A DNA stretch of 33,017 nucleotides from Acidovorax sp. (GTDB lineage Bacteria > Pseudomonadota > Gammaproteobacteria > Burkholderiales > Burkholderiaceae_C), in assembly GCA_024711405.1 (NCBI GenBank), contig JANJSZ010000162.1, forward strand, positions 1-33,017. The letters are read 5' to 3'. The notes beneath the pieces were generated by a model. The model did no database searches and was not told where the DNA came from. It saw only the letters and a list, made by a program, of their open reading frames with translations. Made by a program: the position numbers and the translations under genes. Of this stretch, positions 3,179-33,008 are shown one piece after another (position 1 is the first letter of the stretch; every line of letters begins with the position of its first letter).

Positions 3179-3200
3179 GGATGTTCTCCAGAGAAATTTT

Positions 3201-4562: not shown

Positions 4563-6652
4563 GCCCCCTCCTGTGGATGTAAACCGAAATCACGACCGAT
4601 CTCAAACAAGGGAAGCAGCAGACGCACCACGGTTCCCTTGCCTACCTTGCTGTCCACGGAAACCTTGCCGCCGAGTTCCTGCACGTACTGGAAACTCTCG
4701 TAAGTTCCAATGCCCATGCCTGCCTCCTTGGTGGTTTGAAACGGCTTGAACAGACGCGTCTGGACAAACTCCTCGGACATTCCCTGACCCTCGTCTCCCA
4801 CCTCGACACGGGCATGGCTACCGAAACGATCCACTTTCACCCATACCCGGTCACCGGTATCCGTAGCGTCGAATGCGTTGTGCACCAAGTGCCCGATGAT
4901 GCGCTCCAACCGGTCAGCCTGTCCACGGGTAAAGATCTGTGGCGCGACCTCCAGCTGCACGGTGCGCCCGCGGCGTAAGGCATTGGCCGCCAACCGTTCA
5001 GCGATCTTGCACAAATCCACGCCCACGGTCGCATCGCCGGACGCGGTGTCTCCGCGCAATTGCAGCATCAGCTGGCGCATGCGGTCCAGCGAGTTTTCTA
5101 CCGTCATCAGCATGTCGGCCTGAAACTCCGGGTTGTTCTGCAGTCGCTTCGCGTTCTTGACCATGAGCGACAGCTGGGCAACGATATTTTTCAGATCGTG
5201 CACCACAAAGGCCGACATGCGATTGAACGCTTCAAATTTGCGCGACTCCAGCAGCGCCTCGGTGGCCTGTATTTGCGCAAGAAAGCTCGCAGCCTGGCGT
5301 CCGGCAGTTTTCAAAAGATCGGTGACCTCCCAATTGACGTCCACCAGCGTGCGCGGACTGGCCAGCAACACAAAGCCCAACAAATCGTTGCCTTGCCACA
5401 GCGGAACCAACAGCCAGGCCTGCGGGTACTCGGCCAGCCACTCGGGCAAACGCAAATCGCGGTAACGCCCGGGCGAAGCGCGGAACTCCTCCAGGTTGAC
5501 CACCCACCCGGTGGCGCGCATGAAGGTGGGGAGTTCTGCATTCTTGTCCAGGGTCTGGGTGGTGGAGGCCAGATTCCACCGGGCCGCCTGCCGGTACTGC
5601 TCGTCTTCCGGGCGCAGCAGCCACAACGCGCCTGCGGGACTCTCCAGCATATCGGCAAGGCCCCGCACCACGTTCTGGCCCGCCTCCTGGGGGTGCGCCT
5701 GGCTTGACAGCGTGGCGGTGAACTTCAGCCATTCGTCGCGGTAGTCAAAACGGTAGCGGAAAAAATGCTTGCCCAGAAAGACGCGCAACTTGGCGCGCAA
5801 AGAGCCCGAAAGCGCCAACGCAAACGCAAGCACCAGGCCCACAAAAACCAGCCCCAATTGCAAGGCGCCACCCCATTCACCACCAAAATAGCGCACGTAG
5901 TAACCAACACCCGCCATAAACAGCAGGTACAGCCCCACCAGCGCCAACGTCGCGGAGTGAAATACGACCTTGCGGGAGACGCGTATCTTGGCGATCCAGT
6001 TGCGGTGCCGCGTAGTGGCCAGCAGCAGAAACGGCACCATCAGCGCGTGCACGAACGGCCTCGCAGCAAAGGCATCAGGGTCCACCCCCTGAAAAAGCAC
6101 ACCTTGGGAAAACAGGTACAGGTCAAACAGGAAGATGCCCGCCAGTCCCAGGCAAACCGGTTTGGCGCTCCACAGCGAATCGTCAGGAAGATTGCGGAAC
6201 AATTGTTCCACCAGGACCAGTCCGCCAAGTGCCAGCAACACCATGAGAAACATCTGCCCCACCACCCCGGCCAGGACACTCATGATCACCATCAACGCGG
6301 GCACACCCAGCAAGCCCGCCGCCGCAAACCCGGGCAACCACCGATACCACGGGCTATCCACCACACCCGCATCGGGCTTGAAAAAAAGGGCCAGAAAGGC
6401 ACCCCAGCAGAGATAGCGCAGCAAGTCGGCCGACTGGGCCGCCAGCCACCACGCAGCGCTCACGGTCAGCGCCAGCCAGCTGAAACCACTCCAGATCACC
6501 GTCAGCAATGCAGCAGCAAGCATTGCCGCACCAATGCGATTGACCGGCACACGCAGATATTTCTGGCGGAGCAAGCGCAGTGCCAGCAAGGCGTAGGCCC
6601 CTGCCGATAAAGTCAAGCCCCAGTAAACCAGGGTAGCTTCACTGTTGTTCAT
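4559..6652 (-). CDS. prsK: PEP-CTERM system membrane histidine kinase (PrsK-like)
   Basis: 697 aa; N-terminal multi-TM region, GAF-like middle, H-box FVVHDLKN and ATPase motifs (DEGQGMS, GIGTYES). Overlaps prsR start (ATGA). Confidence 0.9.
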   Translation of the reverse strand: MNNSEATLVYWGLTLSAGAYALLALRLLRQKYLRVPVNRIGAAMLAAALLTVIWSGFSWLALTVSAAWWLAAQSADLLRYLCWGAFLALFFKPDAGVVDSPWYRWLPGFAAAGLLGVPALMVIMSVLAGVVGQMFLMVLLALGGLVLVEQLFRNLPDDSLWSAKPVCLGLAGIFLFDLYLFSQGVLFQGVDPDAFAARPFVHALMVPFLLLATTRHRNWIAKIRVSRKVVFHSATLALVGLYLLFMAGVGYYVRYFGGEWGGALQLGLVFVGLVLAFALALSGSLRAKLRVFLGKHFFRYRFDYRDEWLKFTATLSSQAHPQEAGQNVVRGLADMLESPAGALWLLRPEDEQYRQAARWNLASTTQTLDKNAELPTFMRATGWVVNLEEFRASPGRYRDLRLPEWLAEYPQAWLLVPLWQGNDLLGFVLLASPRTLVDVNWEVTDLLKTAGRQAASFLAQIQATEALLESRKFEAFNRMSAFVVHDLKNIVAQLSLMVKNAKRLQNNPEFQADMLMTVENSLDRMRQLMLQLRGDTASGDATVGVDLCKIAERLAANALRRGRTVQLEVAPQIFTRGQADRLERIIGHLVHNAFDATDTGDRVWVKVDRFGSHARVEVGDEGQGMSEEFVQTRLFKPFQTTKEAGMGIGTYESFQYVQELGGKVSVDSKVGKGTVVRLLLPLFEIGRDFGLHPQEGA

Positions 6653-6675
6653 GGCGATGCGAGGTGGGCCGATTT

Positions 6676-8070
6676 TTACTGCGCACCTTTGCCCGTCAGA
6701 ACCACACCCACCGTTTCGAACAGAATGACCAGATCAAGAAACCAGGAATGGTTTTTGACGTAGTAAAGGTCGTATTGCAACTTGTGCTGCGTATCCTTGA
6801 TCGATGCTCCATAGTGATAGCGAACCTGGGCCCATCCGGTTAATCCTGGTTTGATGCCATGCCGCAATGCGTAGTAAGGAATTTCGAGCGTGAGGCGGTC
6901 CACAAAATAGGGGCGTTCAGGCCGGGGCCCCACCAGGCTCATGTCGCCCTTGAGCACGCACAACAGCTGGGGGAGTTCATCGATGCGCAATTTTCGAATG
7001 ATTTTTCCAACGCGCGTGATCCGCGCATCTTGGGCACTGGCCCAGCGGGGCGTGCCGTCTTTTTCCGCATCGTTGCGCATGCTGCGGAACTTGATCACAT
7101 TGAAAATCCGGCCGTTGAGTCCGACGCGCTCCTGGCGATAGAGAACAGGCCCACCACTTTCGAGATAAATCAAGAGCGCCGTGACAAGCATCACGGGAGA
7201 GGAGAGTGACAGCAACACCATCGCCCCCACCATGTCAAACAGCCATTTGACAATCGAGCGCACCCATCCCTGCTTGAACCCGTCGCCAAAAATCAGCCAT
7301 CCTGCAGACACTGCATCCAGATGGATCTGCCCCAGGAACTGCTCGAAATGGGTGGCGATGTCGATGACCTGAATACCATTGAGCTTGCAGTCGAGCAATT
7401 CACGCATCGGCATACTCCCGCCGCGGCGCTCATTCAGGGCCACCACAATTTCATCCACATGGTGATTTTTCACCACATCGGTCAGTGTTTTCCCGGAAGA
7501 AAGAATGTTGCGCTCGGAAACGCTGGGTTCTTTTTCCTGGGGCCCGGAAAAATAACCGACCAATTCGATCCCCGGATCATTGGCCTGTAACGATTGACCC
7601 ACGATGCACGCACGTGGCCCCGTGCCAAACACCAGGACACGCTGGTGCGTGTACGACACAGGCAATATTTCGCCCCCGAATAATCGAATGATCAGCAGCC
7701 CGCTGACGATCAACAGCAGTGCCACCAATGCCTGTTCATTCTGGTAAGGGGACTGCAGCGGCAAGAGGAACAAGATCCCGCTGGCAATCGCCATCGAGAA
7801 CAGAAAGGAAAGCACAGCCCGCGCCCGGACCTGACCCACGGTCAGTTTGCTGGGGCGCTCATACAGGCCAAGAGCGAAATTCACGGTGAGAATACCGACG
7901 GCCATCAACCCCCCCCGTATGACTCCCGAGGCGATCGCAGCAACATTGAACATGCCCATCCCTGCCTGCATCGTCAACGAGACAATCAACGTGCCGACGA
8001 TCAGCACCGAATACAGCAGGACCTGCAACATGGTGCGCCGGTGAAAATAATGGCTGAAAATTTTGATCAT
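6676..8070 (-). CDS. Undecaprenyl-phosphate sugar transferase, exosortase/PEP-CTERM-associated type (bacterial sugar transferase family)
   Basis: Bacterial sugar transferase signatures (KWLFDMVGAMVLL, VLYRQERVGLNGRIFNVIKFRSM, DELPQLLCVLKGDMSLVGPRPERP). ORF extends to 8220, but MIKIFSHYFHRRTMLQ at 8070 is the more likely start. Confidence 0.88.
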   Translation of the reverse strand: MIKIFSHYFHRRTMLQVLLYSVLIVGTLIVSLTMQAGMGMFNVAAIASGVIRGGLMAVGILTVNFALGLYERPSKLTVGQVRARAVLSFLFSMAIASGILFLLPLQSPYQNEQALVALLLIVSGLLIIRLFGGEILPVSYTHQRVLVFGTGPRACIVGQSLQANDPGIELVGYFSGPQEKEPSVSERNILSSGKTLTDVVKNHHVDEIVVALNERRGGSMPMRELLDCKLNGIQVIDIATHFEQFLGQIHLDAVSAGWLIFGDGFKQGWVRSIVKWLFDMVGAMVLLSLSSPVMLVTALLIYLESGGPVLYRQERVGLNGRIFNVIKFRSMRNDAEKDGTPRWASAQDARITRVGKIIRKLRIDELPQLLCVLKGDMSLVGPRPERPYFVDRLTLEIPYYALRHGIKPGLTGWAQVRYHYGASIKDTQHKLQYDLYYVKNHSWFLDLVILFETVGVVLTGKGAQ

Positions 8071-8216
8071 TGCCACGCCCTGCCAAATCCGATTGCCGGA
8101 TGCCAAAACACGTGCCAGTAAATCGCCCTCGTTCGGCAATTCATGAAACAAGGCGTTTGCGCTGCATCCCAATGCTCGACATGTCAAAAGTTGCTTGACA
8201 ACCCAATGAATCCGAG

Positions 8217-10217
8217 TCAATCACTATCTCTCATCGGATTCAATACACTGTGGTTCAGTGATGGGTCGCGAACCAGGGTTGATACGATAAGCAACAGCCA
8301 AAGCATAATGGATACGCGTGGAATTTCAATGGTGCTAATTACCGCTCCAATCAGGAGGGTAGTAGCCATTGAAACGCCCGCCACAAGGGCCAAAGCGTTT
8401 TTCCGGGCAACACCTTGAGCGACCCGCATCAGCGCCCCAACCGCCAATGCGGCCAGCACCACCCATCCCAGCAACCCACGTTCGATCAACAGTTCCAGCA
8501 GCATGTTGTCGATATGCCAGGGCAGGAAGTTCGCGTGGGCGATGCTGCTCCAGTGCCGCGGCCCTTGTGCAAAAACTGCATTCTTGAGCATCTGCCGGCC
8601 CTGTGGATCGATCAGTTCCACCGCGTCCAGGCGCACAGGCGTCTTTGCCTGCACCACCGTGATCGACAGCACACCCTCTCTCCAGGCAGAAAGGGCCCCC
8701 TCCGGCGCAAAAGCGGGGCCCTGCAAACGCCATTCCAGCCAGCCGCCCGCTTCATCGCCCGATGCAAGCACATGGTGCATTTGCTCCTGGCACCGGAAGG
8801 AGTACAGCAGATGCCGCTCACACAGCTGAACCTTCAACAGCGCGGACGCCCCGGCGTACCCGTGCAAGCGAACGCTGTAGGCGCCACCCGGCGCCAATGC
8901 CACGCGCTGGGTGAGCGCCAGCTCGCCCCTGCCCCCCGGTCGTGCGGGCCCCGAAAGCCACACCTGGCTGCTGCCATTCGTACCGCGCACCCAGCGCACC
9001 TGGCCTGGCAAGGCCCCCTCCATGGTCTGCGTGCTGGAATGCGCCGGCAACCGCCCCACCCCCAGCCCAAGGACCCACTGGCTGGGCGTCTTCAACAAGT
9101 CCACACCGCGCTGCCAATGGGCCAATCGCTGGTAGAGGTCTTTATCGGATCGGGCCAGCCGCCCCGGCATGAATGAGCCGCCCAGCAAAACACCCAGCGC
9201 TTCCACCACCAACGCCACCAGCAGGCACACCATTGCCCGCCGATGCCCTACAGAACCATCCGGCGCAACAAGGCGATATTTGTGAGCCAACACGGTCAGT
9301 GCCATCCATGCCAGCGCCACAGACAGATAAACGCCGCGTGAGTACGTCATGAGAACCGCATAGATCGACACCAGCACCAGCGCCGCCGCCGCGCACCAGC
9401 GCCAGCCATGGGGGGCAGTCCATGCCGCCCACCATGCGAACGGCAATGCCAACGCCAGATAGACGTCGATGGCGCCGCCGCCGACATGCATTTCCCAGAA
9501 CCAGGCCGTAATGCGATAGTGGTCGCTAAAGTCCAGACCACCCACGTAAACGCCGCGCTCCCACACCACCGCGGCGCAGACCAGTGCCAGCCCGGCGACC
9601 ATGCCCCGCGCCAGCCGCAGGGGGGCACCCTCGCCCGCGCGGTACAGCGCGGGCATCAGCAGCAGCCCCCACACCAGGCTCTTGGCCACACGCAGCGTAT
9701 TGCCGGGCAGGTCGTAGTCCCCATAAACCCCGTGGGCCCACAGGTCCGCCAGCAATGCGGTCCACGGCGCGGCGCCACGCGCATCGTCCAAGCCGCGCCA
9801 CACGCCCAGCAGCAGCACCGGTGGCAGCACCCGGTACACCCAACGCATGCTGCGCGGCGTGCAGTGGAAAACGGCGGCGGGTCTGCGCCATGCATCCAGG
9901 CTCCAGCGCAGGTAGGCGCCGCCCATGGCAGCAAGTATCAGCAGGTCGGATTCGTCCACCAGCCACCAGCCCGTCCAGGGTGCGAAACTGGCCACCGGCA
10001 AAAACGCTGGCAACAGGAACCACAGGTCGCCAGGCCGCCAGGCGGCCCAGGCCACCACGGTGCACAGCACCACCACGGCCAGAGCGGGCGCCACGGGGTG
10101 CTGACCGGCGACACCCAGGGCTGCTGCCGCGAAGCATAAGCCGCACAAGCCCGGCATGCCCGCACGGACAGCGGCGGACGTTGCGTTGCGTGCTTCTACA
10201 CCAGCACTTCGGGACAT
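8217..10217 (-). CDS. O-antigen ligase/polymerase (Wzy/WaaL)-like membrane protein with large periplasmic insert
   Basis: Multi-TM protein, 666 aa, with a long soluble beta-rich loop near the C-terminus. Overlaps the end of the decarboxylase gene. Confidence 0.75.
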   Translation of the reverse strand: MSRSAGVEARNATSAAVRAGMPGLCGLCFAAAALGVAGQHPVAPALAVVVLCTVVAWAAWRPGDLWFLLPAFLPVASFAPWTGWWLVDESDLLILAAMGGAYLRWSLDAWRRPAAVFHCTPRSMRWVYRVLPPVLLLGVWRGLDDARGAAPWTALLADLWAHGVYGDYDLPGNTLRVAKSLVWGLLLMPALYRAGEGAPLRLARGMVAGLALVCAAVVWERGVYVGGLDFSDHYRITAWFWEMHVGGGAIDVYLALALPFAWWAAWTAPHGWRWCAAAALVLVSIYAVLMTYSRGVYLSVALAWMALTVLAHKYRLVAPDGSVGHRRAMVCLLVALVVEALGVLLGGSFMPGRLARSDKDLYQRLAHWQRGVDLLKTPSQWVLGLGVGRLPAHSSTQTMEGALPGQVRWVRGTNGSSQVWLSGPARPGGRGELALTQRVALAPGGAYSVRLHGYAGASALLKVQLCERHLLYSFRCQEQMHHVLASGDEAGGWLEWRLQGPAFAPEGALSAWREGVLSITVVQAKTPVRLDAVELIDPQGRQMLKNAVFAQGPRHWSSIAHANFLPWHIDNMLLELLIERGLLGWVVLAALAVGALMRVAQGVARKNALALVAGVSMATTLLIGAVISTIEIPRVSIMLWLLLIVSTLVRDPSLNHSVLNPMRDSD

Positions 10218-11401
10218 GGCGGATGCCCCAAAAAGGCCTGCGGGCTGGCCGTCGCGCCATAGGCCCCGGACTGGAACACCACCACCAGGTCACCGGGCTG
10301 CGCCACAGCCAGTTCCATCCAGTCGGCCAGCACATCCAGCGGGGTGCACAACGGCCCCACGACGCAGGCGCTCTCGCGCCCGGGCGCCTGCAGCCGGTTT
10401 CCAATCACCACCGGGTAGTTGCGCCGGATCACCTGGCCAAAATTTCCCGACGCAGCCAGATGCTGGTGCATGCCACCGTCGGTCACCAGGAACACTTGTC
10501 CACGCGACACCTTGCGGTCAATCACCCGCGCCACATAAATGCCCGCCTCGCCCACCAGATAACGCCCCAGTTCCAGCACCAGCCGCGCCGCAGGCAGCGC
10601 ACGCCCCAGGTCGGCCTGCACCCGTGCCAGGGCATCGGCCACGGGAGCGAGGTCCAGCGCGTGCTCGCCCGGGAAATACGGTATGCCCCAGCCGCCGCCC
10701 AGGTTGACGTGGCGTACGGGGGCGGGTGCATCCTGCGCCAGGCGCAGCACCAGGTCGAGCGAGCGGCGCAGGCTCTCCGCAATCACGTTGCCACGCAGGT
10801 TCTGCGAGCCCGGATAGAGATGGAAACCCTCGAACGCCACGCCGTGCGGCACCATGCCGCGCAACAAGGCCGGCACCTGCTCGGCGTCGATCCCGAAGGG
10901 CTTGGGGCCGCCACCCATGTGCATGCCGGCACCGCGCAATTCGAAATCCGGATTGATGCGCAGTGCCACGCGCGCCGGCCGCCCCAGCGCCTGCGCGGCA
11001 TCGGCCAACACCCGCAGTTCGCGCGCCGACTCCACATGCAACAACACCCCTGCGGCCACGGCCCGGCGCAACTCGGCATCGCTTTTACCCGGCCCCGCAA
11101 AGCCCACGGACTGGACATCCGCGCCGGCATCCAGCGCCAGCTTGAGTTCGCCAGCCGAAGCCACGTCCATGCCATCGACCAGCGGGCGCACAAAGCCCAC
11201 CAGGGCCGGCATGGGGTTGGCCTTGATGGCGTAGTGCAGGTGCACGCCTTGCGGCAGCACCTGCCGCACGGCTGCGATGCGCGCCGCGATCAGCGCGCGG
11301 TCGTATGCGTAAAAAGGCGTCTGGCCGACCCGTTCGGCCAGCAAGGACAGCGGCATGCCGCCGACCTGCAGTTCATCGCGGGAGGTGTCGAATCGATCCA
11401 T
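10196..11401 (-). CDS. Pyridoxal-dependent decarboxylase, exosortase A system-associated
   Basis: LysA/ODC fold-III PLP decarboxylase signatures: TPFYAYD, HYAIKANPMP (PLP Lys), GMHMGGGPKPFGID, NLGGGWGIPYF. Start taken at MDRFDTSRDELQ rather than the ORF-track M at 11638. Confidence 0.87.
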   Translation of the reverse strand: MDRFDTSRDELQVGGMPLSLLAERVGQTPFYAYDRALIAARIAAVRQVLPQGVHLHYAIKANPMPALVGFVRPLVDGMDVASAGELKLALDAGADVQSVGFAGPGKSDAELRRAVAAGVLLHVESARELRVLADAAQALGRPARVALRINPDFELRGAGMHMGGGPKPFGIDAEQVPALLRGMVPHGVAFEGFHLYPGSQNLRGNVIAESLRRSLDLVLRLAQDAPAPVRHVNLGGGWGIPYFPGEHALDLAPVADALARVQADLGRALPAARLVLELGRYLVGEAGIYVARVIDRKVSRGQVFLVTDGGMHQHLAASGNFGQVIRRNYPVVIGNRLQAPGRESACVVGPLCTPLDVLADWMELAVAQPGDLVVVFQSGAYGATASPQAFLGHPPCPEVLV

Positions 11402-13025
11402 ATTCCTGTATCCAGCGTTGGCGGTCCAGCTTGCCATTGGGGCTGCGCGGCAGGGGTTGGCGGACCCATTCCAGTGCTTTGGGCAGCATGTACGCGGGCA
11501 GATGCGCGCGGCAATGCGCCAGAAGGGCCGCGCTGTCCGCGCCGGCGTTGCCGCTGGCCTCGGGCGAAGCCAGCAACGCCGCACAGATGGCGCTGCCCAG
11601 CGCCTCGTCGGGCACCGCATGCACCAGCGCTTCGGCAACCAGGCCGCTGGAATACAGCACCTCTTCCACCTCGGTGGGACTGACGCGGTAGCCCGATGTC
11701 TTGATCATCTCGTCGCGCCGGCCCACAAAATACAGGAACCCATCGGCATCGCGACGCACCGTATCGCCCGAGTACACCGCCCGCTCTGGCGCCCGCCAGT
11801 CGCCACCCGCAGGCAGCAGATCCGCAGGCCAGGGCCTGAAACGCTGCACGGTCGCCTCGGGTTGCCGCCAGTAGCCCAGGGCCACCAGCGGGCCGCGATG
11901 CACCAGCTCGCCAGGCTCGTTGACGGCACACTCGCTGCCGTCTTCGCGCAGCACGCGCACATCGGCATTCGGTATCGCCCGCCCGATGGAATCGGGCCGC
12001 CGGTCCACCTCGTCGGGTGGCAGAAACGTGGAACGAAACGCCTCGGTCAGTCCATACATCAGAAAGGGCGAAGCTGCGGGCGCCAGGTCGCGCAAGCGCT
12101 GCAGCGTGGCCCGGGGCATGCGCCCGCCGGTGTTGGCCCAATAGCGCAGATGTTGCGCGGCACCGGCCGGCCAGTCCAGCGCCGCCAGCTGCATGTACAG
12201 CGGCGGCACTGCCGTCAGGCCCGTGACCCGCTCGCGCACCATGGCCTGCAACACATCGCGCGGCAACAGGTAGTTGAGCAGCACCACGCGCGCGCCCACC
12301 AGAAAGGCCGTGGTGAGCTGGCTGAACCCGGCATCGAAGGACAGTGGCAGCACTGCCAGCAAAGTGTCATCGGCGTGGTTGTGCAGATAGCTCGCAACAC
12401 TGGTGGCGCCGGCCACCAGATTGCGGTGCGACAGCACCACCCCCTTGGGCTGGCCCGTGCTGCCGGAGGTGTAAAAAATCACCGCCACATCCATGTCCAG
12501 CAACCGGGGCGGCGCAACCGGCTGACTGGCCAGCACATCGGACCAGGCATGCACGCCAACGTGCACCGAAAAAACATCTGGAGCGGCCGGCGGGTGCCCA
12601 TCACACAGCACCACATGCCGCAGCCCGGGGCAGTTGGCCAGCACCGGGGCCAAAACCGCCAGGCGCGCAGCGGATGTCACCAGCACCTGCGCTTGCGCAT
12701 CTTGCAGAATGTGCGCCACCTGCCCCGCCTTCAGCAAGGGATTCACGGGCACCAGCACACCGCCTGCGGCAGGTGCAGCAAAGCTGGCCACCACGGTTTC
12801 CACCCGCTTTTCGAGGTACACCACCACGCGGGCCCCGCGCTCCAGCCCCAGGGCCAGCAGGCCCGCCGTGCAGCGCTCCATCTGCGACTGCAGGTCGCCA
12901 TACGACAGGTGCACCCCCTCCACCGTCAAGGCCCGGTGATCCGGCCAACAGGCGGCCGCCCGGGCCGGCAGCTCGTGCAGCAAAACGGGGGGCACTCCGC
13001 TGTGAAAATCCGGCGCTTGGGGCAT
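11373..13025 (-). CDS. AMP-forming acyl-CoA/ACP ligase, exosortase A system-associated
   Basis: ANL superfamily motifs: YTSGSTGQPKGVVLSH, YGLTEAFRSTFLPP, YSGDTVRRDADGFLYFVGRRDEMIKTSGYRVSPTEVEE. Confidence 0.9.
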   Translation of the reverse strand: MPQAPDFHSGVPPVLLHELPARAAACWPDHRALTVEGVHLSYGDLQSQMERCTAGLLALGLERGARVVVYLEKRVETVVASFAAPAAGGVLVPVNPLLKAGQVAHILQDAQAQVLVTSAARLAVLAPVLANCPGLRHVVLCDGHPPAAPDVFSVHVGVHAWSDVLASQPVAPPRLLDMDVAVIFYTSGSTGQPKGVVLSHRNLVAGATSVASYLHNHADDTLLAVLPLSFDAGFSQLTTAFLVGARVVLLNYLLPRDVLQAMVRERVTGLTAVPPLYMQLAALDWPAGAAQHLRYWANTGGRMPRATLQRLRDLAPAASPFLMYGLTEAFRSTFLPPDEVDRRPDSIGRAIPNADVRVLREDGSECAVNEPGELVHRGPLVALGYWRQPEATVQRFRPWPADLLPAGGDWRAPERAVYSGDTVRRDADGFLYFVGRRDEMIKTSGYRVSPTEVEEVLYSSGLVAEALVHAVPDEALGSAICAALLASPEASGNAGADSAALLAHCRAHLPAYMLPKALEWVRQPLPRSPNGKLDRQRWIQEYGSIRHLPR

Positions 13026-13128
13026 GTGGCGGATGGTAAGTCATTGCCATGCTTCCCAGTGGCCCGCCCCACGCAACCCGCGGCCTGCCTAGAATCCATC
13101 CGCAACCCCGCCACACACCCCACCCGCC

Positions 13129-13389
13129 ATGAACCTGACCGATCAAGTCCTTCACGTGCTCGACAGCGCACTCAGCCTGCAAGGTCGCACCGCGGGTTTC
13201 ACGCGCGACACCCCGCTGCTGGGCGCCCTGCCGGAGCTCGACTCCATGGCCGTGCTGGCACTGCTCACCGGTCTGGAAAACCACTTCGGCATCACCTTCA
13301 GCGATGAAGACCTCCGTGGCGCGGTGTTCGCCACCGTGGGCAGTCTGAGCGACCTGGTGGGGCAGGCGCTGGCCCGGCAGGACCCATGA
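13129..13389 (+). CDS. Acyl carrier protein
   Basis: 86 aa with phosphopantetheine attachment motif LPELDSMAVLALLTGLENHFGI. Divergent from the ligase gene. Confidence 0.88.
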   Translation: MNLTDQVLHVLDSALSLQGRTAGFTRDTPLLGALPELDSMAVLALLTGLENHFGITFSDEDLRGAVFATVGSLSDLVGQALARQDP

Positions 13390-14237
13390 GCCTTGTCGGG
13401 CGCGCCACCCTGCCGCAGGCATTTTTCTTGCCGACCGACACCGGGCTGCGCTTTTGCCTGTTCCACCCTCCGCAGGGTGATGCCCGCCGGGGTTGCGTGC
13501 TGTATCTGCACCCGTTTGCCGAAGAGCTCAATGGCACGCGGCGCGTGGTTGCTCAGCAAGCGAGGGCGCTGGCGCAAGCCGGCTACGGCGTGCTGCAGAT
13601 CGATCTGCTGGGCTGTGGCGACAGCGAAGGCGACTTTGCCGATGCCACCTGGCAGGCCTGGCTGCAGGACGCGCGGCTGGCCCACCGCTGGCTGCAAGAA
13701 CACGCCAGGGGCCCGCTGTGGCTATGGGGCCTGCGCGCCGGCGCCCTGCTCGCCACGGCGCTTGCAAGCGAGCTGGCCGATCCTTGCCATTTGCTGCTGT
13801 GGCAGCCGACCCTCAGCGGGCAGCAGCAGCTGCAACAATTTCTGCGCCTGCACACAGCCAGCCAGTGGCTTGGCACTGGCAACGCCAACGGGCCGCCGCC
13901 AGCGTACCTGCTCGACAAGGACCAGTCCGTGGACATTGCCGGCTACACCCTGACACCAGCGCTGGCGCAGGGTCTGGCTGCGGCGCGGCTGCAGCCCTCC
14001 CAGCGGCTCCCAGGTCGGCTGGTCTGGCTGGAGTTGTCAGCCCAGGCAGAGCCCATGCTGACTCCGGCCTCAGTCCAGCAGCTCGCCCTTTGGCGCGACG
14101 CAGGCTGGGCGGTGTCTGCACTGGCGCTCACGGGCCCGCTTTTCTGGCAAACCGTGGCCCACGATGAAGCACCCGCCCTGTTGCAGGCAACGCTCGACAT
14201 GCTCCACGGAGCAGGCACGCAGGTGAAGACGCCATGA
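13386..14237 (+). CDS. Alpha/beta hydrolase-fold protein, exosortase A system-associated hydrolase 2 type
   Basis: Alpha/beta hydrolase pattern (VLYLHPFAEELNGTRR, VLQIDLLGCGDSEGDF); elbow reads GLRAG. 4-nt ATGA overlap with ACP. Confidence 0.82.
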   Translation: MSLVGRATLPQAFFLPTDTGLRFCLFHPPQGDARRGCVLYLHPFAEELNGTRRVVAQQARALAQAGYGVLQIDLLGCGDSEGDFADATWQAWLQDARLAHRWLQEHARGPLWLWGLRAGALLATALASELADPCHLLLWQPTLSGQQQLQQFLRLHTASQWLGTGNANGPPPAYLLDKDQSVDIAGYTLTPALAQGLAAARLQPSQRLPGRLVWLELSAQAEPMLTPASVQQLALWRDAGWAVSALALTGPLFWQTVAHDEAPALLQATLDMLHGAGTQVKTP

Positions 14238-15094
14238 ACTGCCAAGAACAACCCCTGGTCATCCCCGGCCCCAACGCGCAAGACATGCTGGGCATCGTCA
14301 GCCTGCCCGCACCGGACACACCCCAGTCCAGCATGGGCGTGGTGATTGTCGTGGGCGGCGCGCAATACCGAGCGGGCAGCCACCGGCAGTTCGTGCAACT
14401 TGCCCGATTCCTGGCTGCCGCAGGCTACCCGGTGTTGCGCTTTGACTTTCCCGGCATGGGGGACAGCCCAGGCGATCCCGTGCCCTTTGAAGACTCCGCC
14501 CCCCACATTGCCGCAGCCATCGACGCCTTGTGCAGCCACCCCGTGAAGGTGAACAGGGCCGTGCTCTGGGGCCTGTGCGACGGAGCCTCGGCCAGCCTGC
14601 TCTACCTGCAGGCCAGGCATGACCCGCGGGTGACGGGACTGGTGCTGCTCAACCCCTGGGTACGCTCCGACGCCGGACTGGCCCGCGCACGGGTCAAGCA
14701 CTACTACCGCCAGCGCCTCCTGGAACCCGCTTTCTGGCGCAAACTGGTCGCCGGCGGGGTGGGCTGGCAGGCGCTGCGTGGCCTGGGGAGCAACCTGCGC
14801 ACCATGCGGAAAAAATCGCCCCAAACGATCACATTTCAAGAGCGCATGGCGCAAGGTTGGCAGGCGTTTCCTGGGCCTATCCTGCTATTGCTGAGCGAGC
14901 GCGACCTCACGGCACTGGAATTCGTCGAACACGCAAACACCCGCAGCGGCTGGGTCGGCTGGTCCCGAAAAGCAGCACTCATCCGGCACACACTGCCCCT
15001 GGCCGATCACACCTGCTCCACACCCCAGTCACAGCAATCCGTGCAAGCCCTGGTACGGGACTGGCTGGACCCACTCGTACGCCCATTCACTTGA
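14234..15094 (+). CDS. Alpha/beta hydrolase-fold protein, exosortase A system-associated hydrolase 1 type
   Basis: VIVVGGAQYRAGSHRQFVQLARFLAAAGYPVLRFDFPGMGDSPGD; elbow GLCDG. 4-nt ATGA overlap with upstream hydrolase. Confidence 0.83.
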   Translation: MNCQEQPLVIPGPNAQDMLGIVSLPAPDTPQSSMGVVIVVGGAQYRAGSHRQFVQLARFLAAAGYPVLRFDFPGMGDSPGDPVPFEDSAPHIAAAIDALCSHPVKVNRAVLWGLCDGASASLLYLQARHDPRVTGLVLLNPWVRSDAGLARARVKHYYRQRLLEPAFWRKLVAGGVGWQALRGLGSNLRTMRKKSPQTITFQERMAQGWQAFPGPILLLLSERDLTALEFVEHANTRSGWVGWSRKAALIRHTLPLADHTCSTPQSQQSVQALVRDWLDPLVRPFT

Positions 15095-15100
15095 GCGCCT

Positions 15101-15120
15101 CATCGGTGGAAAAACCGATG
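15101..15120 (+). terminator. Possible terminator hairpin after the hydrolase genes
   Basis: Perfect 7-bp inverted repeat CATCGGT-ggaaaa-ACCGATG just after the stop at 15094; no T-tract. Confidence 0.35.
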
Positions 15121-15256
15121 GCGGCTTGGCATCTGCGGATCTTCTGGGGTAACCCGCCTGTGCACGCACACCACCCAGATTCGAACCACGCTCGCAGGCA
15201 TGGAGGGAAAAAACAGCCCTGGTGGCGGGCAATCAACACGCCCACCGGGACACCGT

Positions 15257-15299
15257 CGAAATTTATTACATCCGAATGGATAGACAACACGAAATTTAT
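15257..15299 (+). promoter_or_regulatory. Candidate activator (PrsR?) binding region upstream of the PEP-CTERM gene
   Basis: Direct repeat CGAAATTTAT at 15257-15266 and 15290-15299 (33 bp apart) flanking the inverted repeat ATCC-gaat-GGAT (15270-15281). Confidence 0.4.
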
Positions 15300-15331
15300 C
15301 GCAAGTCCTTGATTTTATTTGATTTTCAAAA

Positions 15332-15348
15332 TTGGCATGCAACATGCA
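15332..15348 (+). promoter_or_regulatory. Sigma-54 (-24/-12) promoter of the PEP-CTERM gene
   Basis: TTGGCATGCAACATGCA: TGGCA and TGCA with canonical GG-N10-GC spacing, two mismatches to TGGCACGNNNNTTGCA; about 62 nt upstream of the ATG at 15411. Confidence 0.75.
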
Positions 15349-15410
15349 TTCTCAGCGTAAACCGCAATCCCGCGGTCTCTGCAGCACCTTTTGAACTCAA
15401 GGAGCACGAT

Positions 15411-16085
15411 ATGAAATTCCTTCGCCAAACCCTGTCAGCAGGCGCACTGGCAGTGGCCGCGCTGGTTGCGGCACCTGCCCATGCAACGTTCGTCGGATCG
15501 ATTCCCGGAGGAGCCGCCACCAACGACTACCTTGCGGCCATTGGCAGTGGTCCCGTGGAGGGTTGGTTCAACGCAAACCTCTATCTGCTCGGAGGTCCCG
15601 CCAACATTTCTGTGCAGTATTTCGGCGCAGAAGCTGGCTATAGCAACTCCTTCGATTTTGGGGCCTGCGGATTTGACCACCTTGGAGGGAACACAATCAC
15701 TGGAGCCCAAGTCGGCTCAACTTGCAACTTGACCAATGTTGCCTCTGGCCTGCTCAACTTTTACTTCTCGGGGCTGGGCGGTGCACCGAATCTTGTCAAC
15801 GGAGCCAACGACGGCAATGTGGCGTTGGCGGTGCCCAACTTTTTCGTCACACTCGGCAATACCTTCGACACGACCATCAATGGCAGCACCCCTGGCTCAG
15901 GTCAGGTTGCCTGGCTCTTCCTGGATGACGGCGGCGCCAGTGGTGACGACAACCACGACGACATGGTCATCAGGCTGGCCCTTACAGGAGGCAGCTTCCA
16001 GGTTCCGGAACCAACCAGCCTCGCACTGCTCGGCGTTGCCTTGCTTGGCCTGGGTGCTAGCCGCCGGAAATCAGCTGCCAAATGA
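15411..16085 (+). CDS. PEP-CTERM sorting domain-containing protein
   Basis: Start at 15411 with AAGGAG SD (15399-15404); signal peptide MKFLRQTLSAGALAVAALVAAPAHA; C-terminus VPEPTSLALLGVALLGLGASRRKSAAK (PEP motif, TM helix, basic tail). Confidence 0.95.
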   Translation: MKFLRQTLSAGALAVAALVAAPAHATFVGSIPGGAATNDYLAAIGSGPVEGWFNANLYLLGGPANISVQYFGAEAGYSNSFDFGACGFDHLGGNTITGAQVGSTCNLTNVASGLLNFYFSGLGGAPNLVNGANDGNVALAVPNFFVTLGNTFDTTINGSTPGSGQVAWLFLDDGGASGDDNHDDMVIRLALTGGSFQVPEPTSLALLGVALLGLGASRRKSAAK

Positions 16086-26894: not shown

Positions 26895-27947
26895 TCAGCG
26901 CGATTGGTTCGTCAGCCGCCACTCAACGCGCTGAGCCCATTCAAGCAGGCGCCCCTGCATCCCAGTCGACACGAGGCCCCTGAAATACAAGTGAGACTCG
27001 GTGGCGAAATCCCGCTTGGCTTGTGTATCGCCCTCGCCCCGGTCAATGGTTCGAATGCCCTGTCCACTGGCGGCCAGCAACACCTGCCTGAAAAGAATGC
27101 GTCCCGGAGAGTAAGCCGAAAAAGCTTCGTCATAGACCGGGAACCAATAGTGCAACACGCCATTGGCCACCATGCCCAGGTGGGCAGCAACAAGGTGTGA
27201 ACCAACGGTCAGCGTGCTCAGCACGGACTCGCACGACGGGCTCGGGTTGTCGAGCAGATGTTGCAACAAGCCGGCATAGCGCTCGTCGAACAAGGGCGCG
27301 CCAGGGTGACCGGTGCGCAGGTACTGCGCCCTCTTGAGGCGGATCAACTCCTCCAAATCCTCCCTAGGCCGATCAGACCGCAGCCGAAACGTCAGAGCTC
27401 CGTAGTCTTTAACAAGCTTGCGCTCTCGCCGCTCCGTGTCCCCCACCAGCTTCTTGTCCTGCACCCGCAAGCATTGCCAGTGCGCAGCTCCGCCGTCCGC
27501 GTGAATGACCGTGCGAAGCCCCTTGCGCGGCACATGGCCCGAAAGACCATGGCGTTGTTGGGTTTCGTCGAGGTGGGTGAAGTGGAGGCACGCAACCCCG
27601 CTGCCACGCAGCAAGGCAGGCCAACTGGTTTGTACGTCCGGTGCGGCAATCAAGCCGACATAGTCGGTCATGGGGCCCCCAATGGGTTCGTATAGACCCC
27701 ATCGGCCCAGCCAACCACCGGCGCGCTGCAACGGCATGACCCCAACCAATTTAGGTCCCCGCCGCACAAGGACCACACGGACATCCACCTCCAAGGTAGC
27801 GTGGACAGCTTGCGCGTAGCAAGGCGAAAAAAATGCACCACCTGTGGCCGCTTCTGCAAGCAGTTGCTCCCATGCAACCACGTCCTCAGGGCGAAGCGTC
27901 TCCAGACGACAGGCTTCGATGGACAGTTCAACGCGATTAACACTCAT
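26895..27947 (-). CDS. GNAT/FemAB-like (BcsL/CelD-type) acyltransferase protein
   Basis: GAFFSPCYAQAVHATLEVDVRVVLVRRGPKLVGVMPLQ; HLGMVANGVLHYWFPVYDEAFSAYSPGRILFRQVLLAA. Start MSVNRVEL via ATGA overlap with upstream deacetylase. Confidence 0.78.
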   Translation of the reverse strand: MSVNRVELSIEACRLETLRPEDVVAWEQLLAEAATGGAFFSPCYAQAVHATLEVDVRVVLVRRGPKLVGVMPLQRAGGWLGRWGLYEPIGGPMTDYVGLIAAPDVQTSWPALLRGSGVACLHFTHLDETQQRHGLSGHVPRKGLRTVIHADGGAAHWQCLRVQDKKLVGDTERRERKLVKDYGALTFRLRSDRPREDLEELIRLKRAQYLRTGHPGAPLFDERYAGLLQHLLDNPSPSCESVLSTLTVGSHLVAAHLGMVANGVLHYWFPVYDEAFSAYSPGRILFRQVLLAASGQGIRTIDRGEGDTQAKRDFATESHLYFRGLVSTGMQGRLLEWAQRVEWRLTNQSR

Positions 27948-28975
27948 GCCGATGAGACGGGGCACAGCGGCCGTGCAAACAGAAACCCCGCGAGGCGGCT
28001 AAAGTTCACGCGATCGCTATCACACGTCCACTCGTTCTCAGGCAGATGGATGCGCCCAATGAGAGGTGCAGCCGCCACCTTGGGGGGCCACTCACACAGA
28101 TGGGCATCGCTCGTAAACAACCACTGGTAACCGGCCTGACTGGCTTCGTGTGCCAACCCTGGAGTGAGGTCTCCATGGGGAAACGACAGGTTGGCCGGCA
28201 TGCCTGGTGCATTCAACTTCAAATGGGCCAAGCTCGCCTGCAGCTCGCCCCTGGCCTTGTCACAATGCGTCAACGGCGCGTGCGACATACCATGCGAGCC
28301 CACCTCCATGCCTGCCTTCAGCCATGCATCCAATTCGTCAACATTGATCATCTGGCGCTTGGACACCGCTTCCCACACACCGGGGGCGCCGGCCCGCAGG
28401 GCGGCCACACGGGCTTCGTGTGGCAAACCTGCCATCCAGGCAGACAGGCGCCGGTGCACGTCGGCGCGGTCGGCGTCTTGCGCAGGCCAGCCGGCCCGCT
28501 CACACAACCGGGCCCGCACACCAGGCTGTGCCATGGCGCTCACCAGCGCGTCCTGCCACCAGCGCTCGGGGTGCTGGTTGATGGCATCCCAGGCCACGAA
28601 CAGTAGGGCAGAGAGGCTGCGCCGCTGCAGTTCGGGCAACGCGTGTACCACCGTGTCGCGCCAGCCATCGTCAAAGGTGATGAGCACGGGGTTGGGCGGC
28701 AGCGGCTGGCCCTGCTCGCGGTCAGCAGCCAGCTGACGCAGGGTCACCACGTGGTAATGCCGCTGCACAAAGTCCAACGCGCGCCGAAAGCCCTCCAGCG
28801 TGAAGGTGAACTCGCGCTCGGCCAGGGCGAAGGCCGGGTCATCGGCCGGCAGCACCCGGTGAAACATCAGTACCGTCAACGCTTGGCGGTTGCGCACGCG
28901 GTGGTACAGCCCCCAGACACCTGAGTGGTACAGCGCCTTGCGTCCCATGCACTTGACGGCTTGAAGAGCGCTCAT
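27944..28975 (-). CDS. Polysaccharide deacetylase family protein (copy 2 of tandem)
   Basis: NodB-type motifs VLITFDDGWRDT and SHGMSHAPL. Start MSALQAVKCMGR via ATGA overlap with upstream gene. Confidence 0.88.
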   Translation of the reverse strand: MSALQAVKCMGRKALYHSGVWGLYHRVRNRQALTVLMFHRVLPADDPAFALAEREFTFTLEGFRRALDFVQRHYHVVTLRQLAADREQGQPLPPNPVLITFDDGWRDTVVHALPELQRRSLSALLFVAWDAINQHPERWWQDALVSAMAQPGVRARLCERAGWPAQDADRADVHRRLSAWMAGLPHEARVAALRAGAPGVWEAVSKRQMINVDELDAWLKAGMEVGSHGMSHAPLTHCDKARGELQASLAHLKLNAPGMPANLSFPHGDLTPGLAHEASQAGYQWLFTSDAHLCEWPPKVAAAPLIGRIHLPENEWTCDSDRVNFSRLAGFLFARPLCPVSSA

Positions 28976-29934
28976 GTAGCCACCTCCGACACCTGCATGG
29001 ACTCGGTCATCAGGTTGCGCACGAGTTGATAGGTCACGTGCCAATCGCGCTCGGCCCAGGGGGTGAAGCGCGGAATCTGGAACGGCGATGTACTCGCATC
29101 GGCCACGCCCCAGTGGGTGGTAACGGCATAGCGGTAGCCGGCGCGTTTCACCGCGTCCACGTGCAGGCGCGAGAAATCGGCATAGGGGCGGCCGTTAGGG
29201 TAGGCAAAGCCATTCACCGGACCACCCACAATGGCCTGCAGGCGCTCGCGGGTGCCACCGATCTCGCGCTCGGCTTCTTCTGCGTTGCAGTAGTCCAGGA
29301 TGGGGTGCAACGCGGTGTGGGCACCGATGCCAAAGCCCTGGCTGTGCAGGTCGCGCAGCTGCGCTTCGCTCATCACCGGCACCACGGCCGCCTGAACGCC
29401 AGCCATGGCCTCCAGTTGCTGCAGGATCTGCTCGCGCCGGTAGAGCGTGAGGTACTTCAGCTCTTGCTCCAGGCGCTGCACCTGGCGCTGGCGTTCGGCC
29501 GTGGCGGCCACCGGCTGCGACGGCAGGAAGGGAATGCCCATGTCCAGCATGGGCCCGGGCAGGCGGCGCACCGCCGCCAGGATGCGCTCGTGCCACAGCG
29601 GCATGCCGTCGAACTGACCCGAGGTGATGAAAAAGGTGGCATGCAGGTTGCGCCTGCGCAAGGTCGGGGCCACTCCGGTCAACCAGTCGGGGTAGCCGTC
29701 GTCAAAGGTGATGCAGGCGGCCCGGCGCGGCAGGACGCCGGCCTGCAGGCGGGTGATGGCCTCTTCCAGTGGCAACACGTTCAGCTGGGAAAAGGTCTGG
29801 TCCAGCAGGTGCTCGAAGCGGTTCATGTTGGCGTCGGCAGGCACCAGCGGGTCGCACTGCTGCGGCACCTTGTGGAACAGAAAGACCGACAGCTTGTCTC
29901 TGGACAGGGCGCTCAGGACGAATCGGGAAATCAT
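28972..29934 (-). CDS. Polysaccharide deacetylase family protein (copy 1 of tandem)
   Basis: NodB-type motifs CITFDDGYPDW and GAHTALHPIL. Start MISRFVLSALSRDKLSVFLFHK via ATGA overlap with the ligase gene. Confidence 0.88.
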   Translation of the reverse strand: MISRFVLSALSRDKLSVFLFHKVPQQCDPLVPADANMNRFEHLLDQTFSQLNVLPLEEAITRLQAGVLPRRAACITFDDGYPDWLTGVAPTLRRRNLHATFFITSGQFDGMPLWHERILAAVRRLPGPMLDMGIPFLPSQPVAATAERQRQVQRLEQELKYLTLYRREQILQQLEAMAGVQAAVVPVMSEAQLRDLHSQGFGIGAHTALHPILDYCNAEEAEREIGGTRERLQAIVGGPVNGFAYPNGRPYADFSRLHVDAVKRAGYRYAVTTHWGVADASTSPFQIPRFTPWAERDWHVTYQLVRNLMTESMQVSEVAT

Positions 29935-31241
29935 GTTTTTCTCCCGGGTGTCGCTGCTGAGTGAGCGCGCGCCACATGCAGGCGCAGCATCTCCATGAGC
30001 ATCACCACCATGTAGATGGCCTCGAAGTATCCGAGACTCACCGCCGCACCGCCGGCCATGTAGGCGATGACTGCAAGCATGAGCATGTCGGCCATGTCGC
30101 GCGCCCACAGCCAGCCAGGCCCCAACGATTTCACCTGGCGCTTGATGACAAAGCGGCTGTAGATGGCGTGGAACAGGATTGTCATGAAGATCGCAAACCC
30201 GACAAAACCAAGATCTCCCATGATCTCAAAGTAAATGCTGTGAGAAGCTTTGGGACGATAGGCGGGCACCGGCATGTCCAAGAATGCGAGCAATCCAGTC
30301 GCCCCCTTGAACTGATCCCAAACGCCCTGGGTCTGAATGGCGTGAAAACCGCCGCCAAATATCGGGTTGGTCAGTGCAATGGCTGAACTGACGTTCCAGG
30401 TAAACAGCCGGGAGTTGAACGATTGGTCTGTACTCGCCTCCTTGATGGTCTCAAGTCGGCTGAACCAATCGGCTGGTGCAAGAGCCAAGAAAAGACCGGC
30501 GAGCAGCAGGAAAATAATAAGTCCAGTCCAACGGCGGCGACTGGTCAACACCAGCCAAAAAGCGACGACTGAGAGTGCTATGAACCCGCCTCGGGATCCA
30601 CTACCTCCAACAGCAAGCGCTACCAGAACAAATGCACCCAAAAAGCCCCAACGAATAAGAAAATTTCTTGAATATTGATACAAATAAAATAGCAATGGCA
30701 AACAAAGCACCAGTGCAGTGGAAAGGTGGTTGTTGTCAGCAATCATGGTTCCAGCCGGGCCGCCCACGTTGTGCTGACCACCTGAGGCTATCGCCTTGAG
30801 ACCATTCAGCACACCATGCAGCCCCAAACCAAGAACGATAACGATGATCACTGAATGCAGGTGTACCCTTTCGCGAATGAACAAGGGCATCACCAAACAA
30901 AAAACCAGGCCTTTCACCAGATATTCATAATACTGGGCGTTGTATGGGTTATTCGGATAGGCAAATGCAAACGACAATGTCGCATGCGCAAAGAAAACCA
31001 AATAGAGCCATGAAACACGGTTGACTTGATATGTGGAAATGGGAACGCGCCCAAGCACGATCAACATGATGGTAAGGATCGCAAAAAGGAAATTAACCCT
31101 GGCGTCAGTCATGAAGCCGTAGAAGTAGGCAGTCGGCACCACCACGCCCGTCCAGCCCCACAAAAGATAGGCATTGAGGGGGCGGGCCATGGCCAACGGA
31201 ATGGCCAGCAGCATCATGACTGCGAACATCAGGTCACGCAT
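29931..31241 (-). CDS. O-antigen ligase family / putative O-glycosylation ligase, exosortase A system-associated
   Basis: 436 aa multi-TM; YPNNPYNAQYYEYLVKGLVFCLVMPLFIRER, GPAGTMIADNNHLSTALVLCLPL, FGGGFHAIQT; pattern of the exosortase-A-associated O-glycosylation ligase family. Confidence 0.83.
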   Translation of the reverse strand: MRDLMFAVMMLLAIPLAMARPLNAYLLWGWTGVVVPTAYFYGFMTDARVNFLFAILTIMLIVLGRVPISTYQVNRVSWLYLVFFAHATLSFAFAYPNNPYNAQYYEYLVKGLVFCLVMPLFIRERVHLHSVIIVIVLGLGLHGVLNGLKAIASGGQHNVGGPAGTMIADNNHLSTALVLCLPLLFYLYQYSRNFLIRWGFLGAFVLVALAVGGSGSRGGFIALSVVAFWLVLTSRRRWTGLIIFLLLAGLFLALAPADWFSRLETIKEASTDQSFNSRLFTWNVSSAIALTNPIFGGGFHAIQTQGVWDQFKGATGLLAFLDMPVPAYRPKASHSIYFEIMGDLGFVGFAIFMTILFHAIYSRFVIKRQVKSLGPGWLWARDMADMLMLAVIAYMAGGAAVSLGYFEAIYMVVMLMEMLRLHVARAHSAATPGRKT

Positions 31242-31368
31242 CGCTGTCCCGTTTGTAGGAAAACCAGCCCAGGTCGGCCTTCTGGGGAGACTTGGGGTCG
31301 ATCTTGAACAGGCGCCAGCACAGATAGACCATGCAGGTCACGTCCAGGGTAAGAATAAGCGCTTCCAT
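31234..31368 (-). CDS. Small ORF, 44 aa, putative single-pass membrane-associated microprotein
   Basis: Below the ORF-track cutoff. Reverse-strand translation: MEALILTLDVTCMVYLCWRLFKIDPKSPQKADLGWFSYKRDSDA*. Fills the only gap between the GT-C gene and the ligase; overlaps the ligase start (ATGCGTGA); GAGG upstream. Confidence 0.7.
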   Translation of the reverse strand: MEALILTLDVTCMVYLCWRLFKIDPKSPQKADLGWFSYKRDSDA

Positions 31369-31382
31369 CTGAGCAAATAACC

Positions 31383-33008
31383 TCACTGCAGCTTGATCGT
31401 TCGGCCAATGATCTTGAGTTCAATATTGAGCTTATCGGGCTTGGGCGACACAGGTCCGAGATTGCGGTAGATGACGAGCTCGCGCTCGTGCGCTCGGTGG
31501 TTCGCCGGTGTCGCGATGCGCGCCACTTCCTCAAACTGCGAGCTGACCAGCACTCGCTCGAACCGGCGCATGGCCTCCAGGTCAGTCCAGAAACCCGGTT
31601 GCATCACCACATAGTGCACACCACTGGTGTTGATGACACGAGCAATCTCCTCCTCGCTCAGGCCCTTGTCTTCAACGCCCAGTTCGCGCCTCACTGCCAC
31701 GCTCAGCAGCACCTTGTCTGCACGCAGCACGCTCAGGTCGCGCCGGTCTTCGCGCGCGCGAAGGTTGAAGGTGAACGAGCCATCGCGGTAGCCTGAAAAC
31801 ATCACCACGCTGTCTCGCGGCGCACGGCGTACGATCTCATCCACCACTTGGGCATAACCATCCACGTAGTACACCGGCCGCCACAGCGCGGTAACGAAGG
31901 CGGTAGCAACCACGAGTGTAAGCAGCACAAGGCGTGCGACCATGACAGGCGCCCACGCCTGAACCACAGCCACCGCAGCAAACACCAACGCCGGCAAGAT
32001 GTACACGCTGTGGCGCGCTTCTTTCAGGTCGATCAGCGAATAAAAGACATAGCCCAGCACAAACCACAGACCCCAGAAGGTCCAAGCCTGCGCAAGTGGC
32101 ACACGGCCCTTGCGCACGAGCGCCCAGGTCACGCCAAACGCCGCCAGCAGCAGCAGGGGCCAGCCCGTCTGAAACGGCATCTGCCGCAGATACCAGACCC
32201 AGCCCGCGATGGAGGTTCGTGACGCCACAGAATCCGCTACTCCGCTGACCGACTGCACATTGGCCTGGCCGAACTTCAGGGTGAGAACGATCAAAGGCAG
32301 TAGGCTGATCACAGACAGCAGCAACACCACCCACACATGCCCTCGCCAGAGCAGTACCCACCCATTCCGGTGCAACAGCAAGATGGCATAGACCAGCCCG
32401 ACAAAGGCCACACTGATTTTGGTGTACATGGCCAGTACCAACAGTGCTGCGGCCAGGTACAAGTAAACAGGTCGATCCGAGCGCCAATGTGCAACAAAGG
32501 CCACCGCACTCCAAACCAGAAAGGCGAAGGCCGGCACTTCAAGCATGACCTGCCGGCCCCAGAAAGCCACTTCGGGCAACAGCAACGTAAGGGTCGCAAA
32601 GGTCAGGGCGCCGGTCTGGTCGAACCAGAAGCGCGCCAGGCGCCAGCAGCCCAAACCGAAAGCCAGATAGTGCAAGGCCACCACCAGCAGCGCCGTCTCA
32701 TGTGACACGCCGAACAAGGCATAAAAGGGTGCGCTGACGGCGTAGAACAGCGGTGGATAGAACAGGATGGTCAGCGCCGGGTACTGGGCGTAATAACGGT
32801 AGGCATAGCCCGCCGGGTCGTCCAGCGGCATGTCGCGTAGCAAGTCCATCACGAACACGCCGTTGAGCGCATGGCGCGGTGAATCACTCCAGTAGAAGGC
32901 ACCGCCGTGTGGGGCCTGCAGGAACAGTGCGACGACAAGCAGCGCCAGCAACGCAGCGGCCACAGCCCATTGCTGGCGGGAAGGACGGCTCAGTTCAGTG
33001 GTTTGCAT
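31383..33008 (-). CDS. GT-C fold (family 39 / ArnT-like) membrane glycosyltransferase
   Basis: 541 aa multi-TM with luminal acidic motif FYWSDSPRHALNGV and YPPLFYAVSAPFYALFG; C-terminal soluble domain. Confidence 0.83.
   Translation of the reverse strand: MQTTELSRPSRQQWAVAAALLALLVVALFLQAPHGGAFYWSDSPRHALNGVFVMDLLRDMPLDDPAGYAYRYYAQYPALTILFYPPLFYAVSAPFYALFGVSHETALLVVALHYLAFGLGCWRLARFWFDQTGALTFATLTLLLPEVAFWGRQVMLEVPAFAFLVWSAVAFVAHWRSDRPVYLYLAAALLVLAMYTKISVAFVGLVYAILLLHRNGWVLLWRGHVWVVLLLSVISLLPLIVLTLKFGQANVQSVSGVADSVASRTSIAGWVWYLRQMPFQTGWPLLLLAAFGVTWALVRKGRVPLAQAWTFWGLWFVLGYVFYSLIDLKEARHSVYILPALVFAAVAVVQAWAPVMVARLVLLTLVVATAFVTALWRPVYYVDGYAQVVDEIVRRAPRDSVVMFSGYRDGSFTFNLRAREDRRDLSVLRADKVLLSVAVRRELGVEDKGLSEEEIARVINTSGVHYVVMQPGFWTDLEAMRRFERVLVSSQFEEVARIATPANHRAHERELVIYRNLGPVSPKPDKLNIELKIIGRTIKLQ

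What the first reader, a model, noticed from the sequence alone, without database searches (positions are those of the whole stretch)
31234..31368. Unlisted 44-aa coupled microprotein ORF between the GT-C transferase and the O-glycosylation-ligase-like gene
Seen in sequence: an ATG ORF on the minus strand encodes MEALILTLDVTCMVYLCWRLFKIDPKSPQKADLGWFSYKRDSDA. It starts 14 nt after the GT-C stop, its stop overlaps the ligase start (ATGCGTGA), and it exactly fills an otherwise unexplained gap in an operon where the four downstream genes are joined by ATGA overlaps. One short hydrophobic helix plus a basic, aromatic cytosolic-like tail suggests a small membrane partner of the ligase or GT-C enzyme. 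I do not know of a described function.
Basis: partly seen in the sequence, partly recalled or inferred. Interest (0 to 1): 0.75.

Follow-up and report, generated by a model that had tools for sequence, protein, structure and literature searches.

The report
Hidden small partner of sugar-chain ligase
A 44-residue membrane protein that annotation appears to miss sits next to a sugar-chain ligase gene in this bacterium, and relatives of it accompany the same branch of ligases in alpha-, beta- and gammaproteobacteria, so it is very probably a missing subunit of an enzyme of the exosortase (protein-sorting and exopolysaccharide) system.

Summary
The ORF is real, exactly as described, and not a chance ORF. 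A family of 26-75-residue single-pass membrane microproteins (here 'MP') was found with one branch of exosortase-associated O-antigen-ligase-family genes (TIGR03097) in 78 of 80 fetched loci from Alpha-, Beta- and Gammaproteobacteria; the other two are a contig-end fragment and a frameshifted copy. On a 106-row ligase tree MP presence needs one change (75 with, 31 without; support 100). Selection is purifying (pooled dN/dS about 0.23). MP does not follow the GT-C gene, which is confined to the window's genus, nor the exosortase itself, present in 21 of 22 genomes whose ligases lack MP. In Rhodospirillales MP lies downstream of, or divergent from, the ligase, which argues against a cis-acting leader peptide. 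Two AlphaFold2 predictions of natural MP-ligase read-throughs order the MP helix and tail and imply the same contact: MP Tyr38 with the ligase's cytosolic TM7-TM8 loop. No Pfam or NCBIfam family covers it and no paper was found. Best reading: an undescribed small subunit of this ligase branch. Physical binding and biochemical role are inferred, not shown.

The parts
31234..31368 (-). MP: 44-aa single-pass membrane microprotein gene
   Evidence: ORF; homologues beside the ligase in 78/80 fetched loci; dN/dS about 0.23 pooled
31306..31362 (-). MP transmembrane helix (residues about 3-21), with Asp9 conserved as D/N in 68 of 88 members and K/R at residue 22 in 74 of 88
   Evidence: family column counts; helix 2-25 predicted in the homologue L134
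31255..31275 (-). MP cytosolic clip motif DLGWFSY (residues 32-38; family form LGxFxY, absent in some lineages)
   Evidence: the equivalent Tyr38 is one of only two bridge residues in both predicted models
31234..31241 (-). 8-nt overlap of MP stop with ligase start (ATGCGTGA), a translational-coupling arrangement
   Evidence: the same +8 overlap recurs in many loci
29931..31241 (-). O-antigen-ligase-family protein, TIGR03097 PEP_O_lig_1, 436 aa: the proposed partner
   Evidence: TIGR03097 E 1.2e-93, cut-off exceeded; Wzy_C and DUF5935
30663..30680 (-). Ligase TM7-TM8 cytosolic loop (residues about 188-193), predicted docking site of the MP clip
   Evidence: the other bridge residue: ligase residue 191 in the L134 model and its equivalent 188 in the L190 model
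31383..33008 (-). GT-C (PMT_2) glycosyltransferase upstream; same operon but not the partner
   Evidence: PMT_2; distribution
26895..29934 (-). Downstream coupled genes: two polysaccharide deacetylases and a GNAT acetyltransferase

Best explanation
MP is a small accessory subunit of the adjacent exosortase-associated O-antigen-ligase-family enzyme. A single helix crosses the inner membrane with its N-terminus outside and its tail in the cytosol; the tail clip (LGxFxY) docks on the ligase's TM7-TM8 loop, and the helix packs against the ligase. Most likely it stabilises or positions the ligase so that the periplasmic catalytic face works, comparable to the single-helix partner of RodA-type enzymes. 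In most lineages the two are made together through overlapping stop and start codons. Shown: a conserved coding gene and strict co-inheritance with one ligase branch. Predicted: topology and docking. Inferred: packing of the helix and an assembly or activation role.
For: Same-frame MP next to the ligase in 78/80 loci from three classes; the first profile, built on 10 sequences only, already hit 45 of these loci at E < 0.001, 42 of them outside the seed genomes. One change on the ligase tree, 75 with MP against 31 without (also 9 against 92). Genome-wide profile search in Rhodospirillales: 10 of 11 hits lie within about 300 nt of a TIGR03097 ligase. A further hit in the window's order, G099, precedes a truncated ligase start. 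Purifying selection. Downstream or divergent positions in Rhodospirillales and about 2 kb upstream in Azonexaceae argue for action as a protein. Two predictions (pLDDT 91.8, pTM 0.91; pLDDT 87.8, pTM 0.87) give MP Tyr38 and the ligase TM7-TM8 loop as the only two bridge residues, and in the second model MP residues 1-40 have pLDDT 87-96 while the linker falls to 36-46.
Against: No binding, expression or phenotype data. The predictions used read-throughs of the MP stop codon as one chain, so proximity is partly imposed; no PAE or coordinates were available; the contact is inferred from secondary-structure letters; no MP-alone control was run; and the two alignments share rows. The clip motif is absent in Massilia, Undibacterium, Vibrio and Colwellia members, so docking by the clip cannot be universal. 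Window against its nearest Acidovorax relatives gives dN/dS of 0.38-0.83. MP is short, so weak matches in the most distant lineages are less certain.
Confidence: 0.7

Rival explanations
1. MP is a cis-acting leader peptide whose translation opens the ligase ribosome-binding site; its sequence hardly matters.
For: Stop-start overlaps of 8 or 4 nt in most loci.
Against: dN/dS about 0.23 pooled, conserved helix and motif, and MP genes downstream of or divergent from the ligase, where a leader cannot act.
Confidence: 0.06
2. MP is a partner of another member of the system (exosortase, flippase, polymerase or a glycosyltransferase) and is only parked next to the ligase.
For: Exosortase is present in all 24 MP-containing genomes searched.
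Against: Exosortase is also present in 21 of 22 genomes whose ligases lack MP, so MP tracks the ligase branch rather than the exosortase. MP stays beside the ligase when orientation changes. Partners other than exosortase and GT-C were not tested.
Confidence: 0.15
3. MP is a partner of the GT-C transferase upstream.
For: Adjacent in the window's genus.
Against: GT-C homologue found only in the window's genus among the loci searched; G028 keeps GT-C without MP.
Confidence: 0.02
4. Chance open frame without function.
For: An ORF this long is not rare by chance.
Against: Conservation across three classes with purifying selection.
Confidence: 0.01

Closest known systems
TIGR03097 PEP_O_lig_1, putative O-glycosylation ligase, exosortase A system-associated
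   Same: The partner ligase belongs to it by score.
   Different: Only one branch of the family carries MP; about 90 ligases of the window's order lack it.
WaaL O-antigen ligase (PDB 7tpg)
   Same: Closest solved fold of the fused model.
   Different: I know of no small subunit of WaaL; sequence identity is 16% in the structural alignment.
RodA-PBP2 (PDB 8tj3)
   Same: Second structural hit; RodA works with a partner that contributes a single membrane helix (own knowledge).
   Different: PBP2 also has a large periplasmic enzyme domain; MP has none. The likeness is in working principle, not descent.
Small membrane subunits such as CydX, KdpF and AcrZ (own knowledge)
   Same: Short single-helix proteins that stabilise or modulate a large membrane protein.
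   Different: No sequence relation found; Pfam and NCBIfam give no match over a cut-off.

Membership tests
TIGR03097 (the partner ligase) | Score above the curated cut-off of 188.1 bits | tested here: met
   314.2 bits
TIGR03097 (the partner ligase) | Genome encodes an exosortase | tested here: met
   TIGR02602 hit in G000, E 4.8e-74
TIGR03097 (the partner ligase) | Ligase or polymerase activity | not testable with these tools
   Needs biochemistry; 'putative' in the family name
Any Pfam or NCBIfam family (for MP) | Match over the curated cut-off | tested here: not met
   No match over a cut-off for 16 diverse members; the window MP has none at all
TIGR02808 short protein family (for MP) | Match of family members over the cut-off | tested here: inconclusive
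   One of 79 rows at E 0.0005; which row, and whether over the cut-off, is not shown; no match for the other rows or for the window MP
Small single-helix accessory subunit (kind) | One membrane helix, conserved, encoded with one partner | tested here: met
Small single-helix accessory subunit (kind) | Physical association with the partner | tested here: inconclusive
   Predicted only, from read-through chains

The most novel reading that the evidence does not exclude
A whole branch of O-antigen-ligase-family enzymes in the exosortase system is a two-subunit enzyme whose small subunit has been overlooked, and the branch with MP does a different job from the branch without it.
Probability: 0.5. 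Interest if true: 0.82.

Novelty: new variant of a known kind. Interest (0 to 1): 0.7.

Why it matters
The exosortase-associated ligase has no established function that I could find. A conserved subunit would change how the enzyme must be expressed, assayed and modelled, would split the family into two testable branches, and would add a case to the list of conserved small proteins missed by annotation: in a Vibrio alfacsensis plasmid the 29-aa member lies in an 86-nt gap with no gene listed in the PLSDB table.

Tried and rejected
GT-C partnership: rejected on distribution. Cis leader peptide: disfavoured by trans positions and selection. Exosortase partnership: disfavoured. MP near the MP-lacking ligases: an improved profile over those loci gave nothing significant. 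Direct single-sequence search reached only one same-genus relative convincingly, which led to the ligase-anchored approach. Ligase positions that separate the two branches are scattered, not confined to the predicted docking loop, so they were not used as interface evidence. Literature searches on exosortase with small protein, O-glycosylation ligase, and accessory subunits of WaaL or Wzy found no described counterpart; the library holds open-licence papers only. L138's in-frame fusion was not used as evidence of natural fusion, because it may be an assembly error.

Full report
Observation. The ORF is present as written: 44 codons from ATG 31368 to TGA 31234 on the minus strand, 14 nt after the GT-C stop, with an 8-nt overlap into the ligase start. 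Three ATGA overlaps join the ligase, two polysaccharide deacetylases and a GNAT gene. Length alone proves nothing: a similar ORF is expected in about one of six such stretches.

Conservation. The sequence itself found one convincing relative in the genus. Looking upstream of the TIGR03097 ligase instead showed the same microprotein in G033, G062 and G066, then in another genus of the family and in two other families of the order. A profile of these 10 hit, in the window's genus, only the four genomes with this ligase type, and in 398 genomes of the order the seven seed-linked places plus four weak hits. A ligase-anchored scan of the species genomes gave 80 loci. The seed profile found MP at E < 0.001 in 45 of them, 42 outside the seed genomes; after iteration and inspection MP was located in 78. 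The two others are L189, a contig fragment, and L138, where a shifted frame joins MP to the ligase. The final profile was trained partly on these loci, so the independent tests are the seed-only search, the hit G099 next to a truncated ligase start, and Rhodospirillales, where 10 of 11 genome-wide hits lie beside a TIGR03097 ligase (one of the ten, G466, is the genome of locus L209 used in the profile). In that set 13 further ligase genomes had no hit at that threshold; local search gave weak candidates in several (a run that printed its table and then stopped on an unrelated error).

Selection and anatomy. Over nine separate pairs, summing the site and change counts printed by hand gives pS 0.43, pN 0.13 and dN/dS about 0.23; individual pairs range from 0.03 to 0.42 within this set, and up to 0.83 for the window against Acidovorax soli. 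The family (88 sequences, median 47 residues, 26 to 75) has E/D at position 2 (82 of 85), D/N at 9 (68 of 88), a hydrophobic stretch, K/R at 22 (74 of 88) and, in about half of the members, an LGxFxY-like motif in the tail. By the positive-inside rule (established knowledge) the tail is cytosolic.

Which partner. The ligase tree of the order puts nine MP-linked ligases together and 92 without MP elsewhere. With alpha, beta and gamma members the label needs one change, support 100, 75 against 31 rows; the root is not known, so gain and loss cannot be told apart. GT-C homologues were found only in the window's genus, including G028, which lacks MP and has a different ligase. Exosortase occurs with MP (24 of 24) and without MP (21 of 22); 14 control genomes had none. 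So MP follows the ligase branch.

Cis or trans. Upstream overlap is the rule, but MP is downstream in L179, L187 and L196, divergent in L198, L201, L203, L209 and L212, and about 2 kb upstream in L142 and L154. A leader peptide could not act from there.

Structure. The Burkholderiales pair L134 gave mean pLDDT 91.8 and pTM 0.91; the alphaproteobacterial pair L190, with an alignment lacking the window's clade, gave 87.8 and 0.87. Each model has exactly two residues marked as strand or bridge: MP Tyr38, and the residue that opens the loop between the helices I number TM7 and TM8 (ligase 191 and 188). A bridge needs two partners, so I infer that they pair. The loop is cytosolic if the ligase N-terminus is cytosolic, which fits the MP topology. 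The fused model's closest solved fold is WaaL, then RodA.

Comparison and novelty. MP has no Pfam or NCBIfam match over a cut-off. Papers found describe the exosortase system and floc formation without such a protein in the passages searched (PMC1569441, PMC9850573), and targeted searches found none. In Vibrio alfacsensis plasmids the stretch before the ligase has no listed gene, and in one of them it was shown to hold MP, though that table is stated to be incomplete. I therefore call it a new variant of a known kind: small single-helix subunits are known in general, but not, as far as I could find, for this ligase family.

Verdict. Coding gene: about 0.98. Functional link to the ligase: about 0.85. 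Physical subunit: about 0.7. Biochemical role: open.

Noticed in passing
window 401-16085: The contig also carries PrsT, PrsR, PrsK, EpsB2, TIGR03098/03099/03100/03101 genes and a PEP-CTERM protein, so the window lies in an exosortase A region; the exosortase gene itself is on another contig (G000:C128).
   Followed up: partly
window 8217-10217: 666-aa protein with a weak Wzy_C match just under Pfam's cut-off: a possible second ligase- or polymerase-like enzyme in the cluster.
   Followed up: no
L138 4809-6344: MP and ligase are in one open frame through a shift relative to close relatives; natural fusion or assembly error cannot be told apart.
   Followed up: partly
L109 (G028) and L110 (G003): Two genomes of the window's genus have a divergent ligase without MP; L110 has a 26-residue hydrophobic ORF, MLDNISIVVSVGLLIYMLVLAIRKDR, about 1 kb downstream.
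   Followed up: no
L239-L254 (Rhodospirillales): Downstream MP candidates carry a WPFDM-like motif where others have LGxFxY.
   Followed up: no
ligase alignment, window ligase residues 50, 169, 269, 275, 280, 400: Positions that largely separate MP-linked from MP-lacking ligases, for example F275 against A, suggesting functional divergence of the branches.
   Followed up: no
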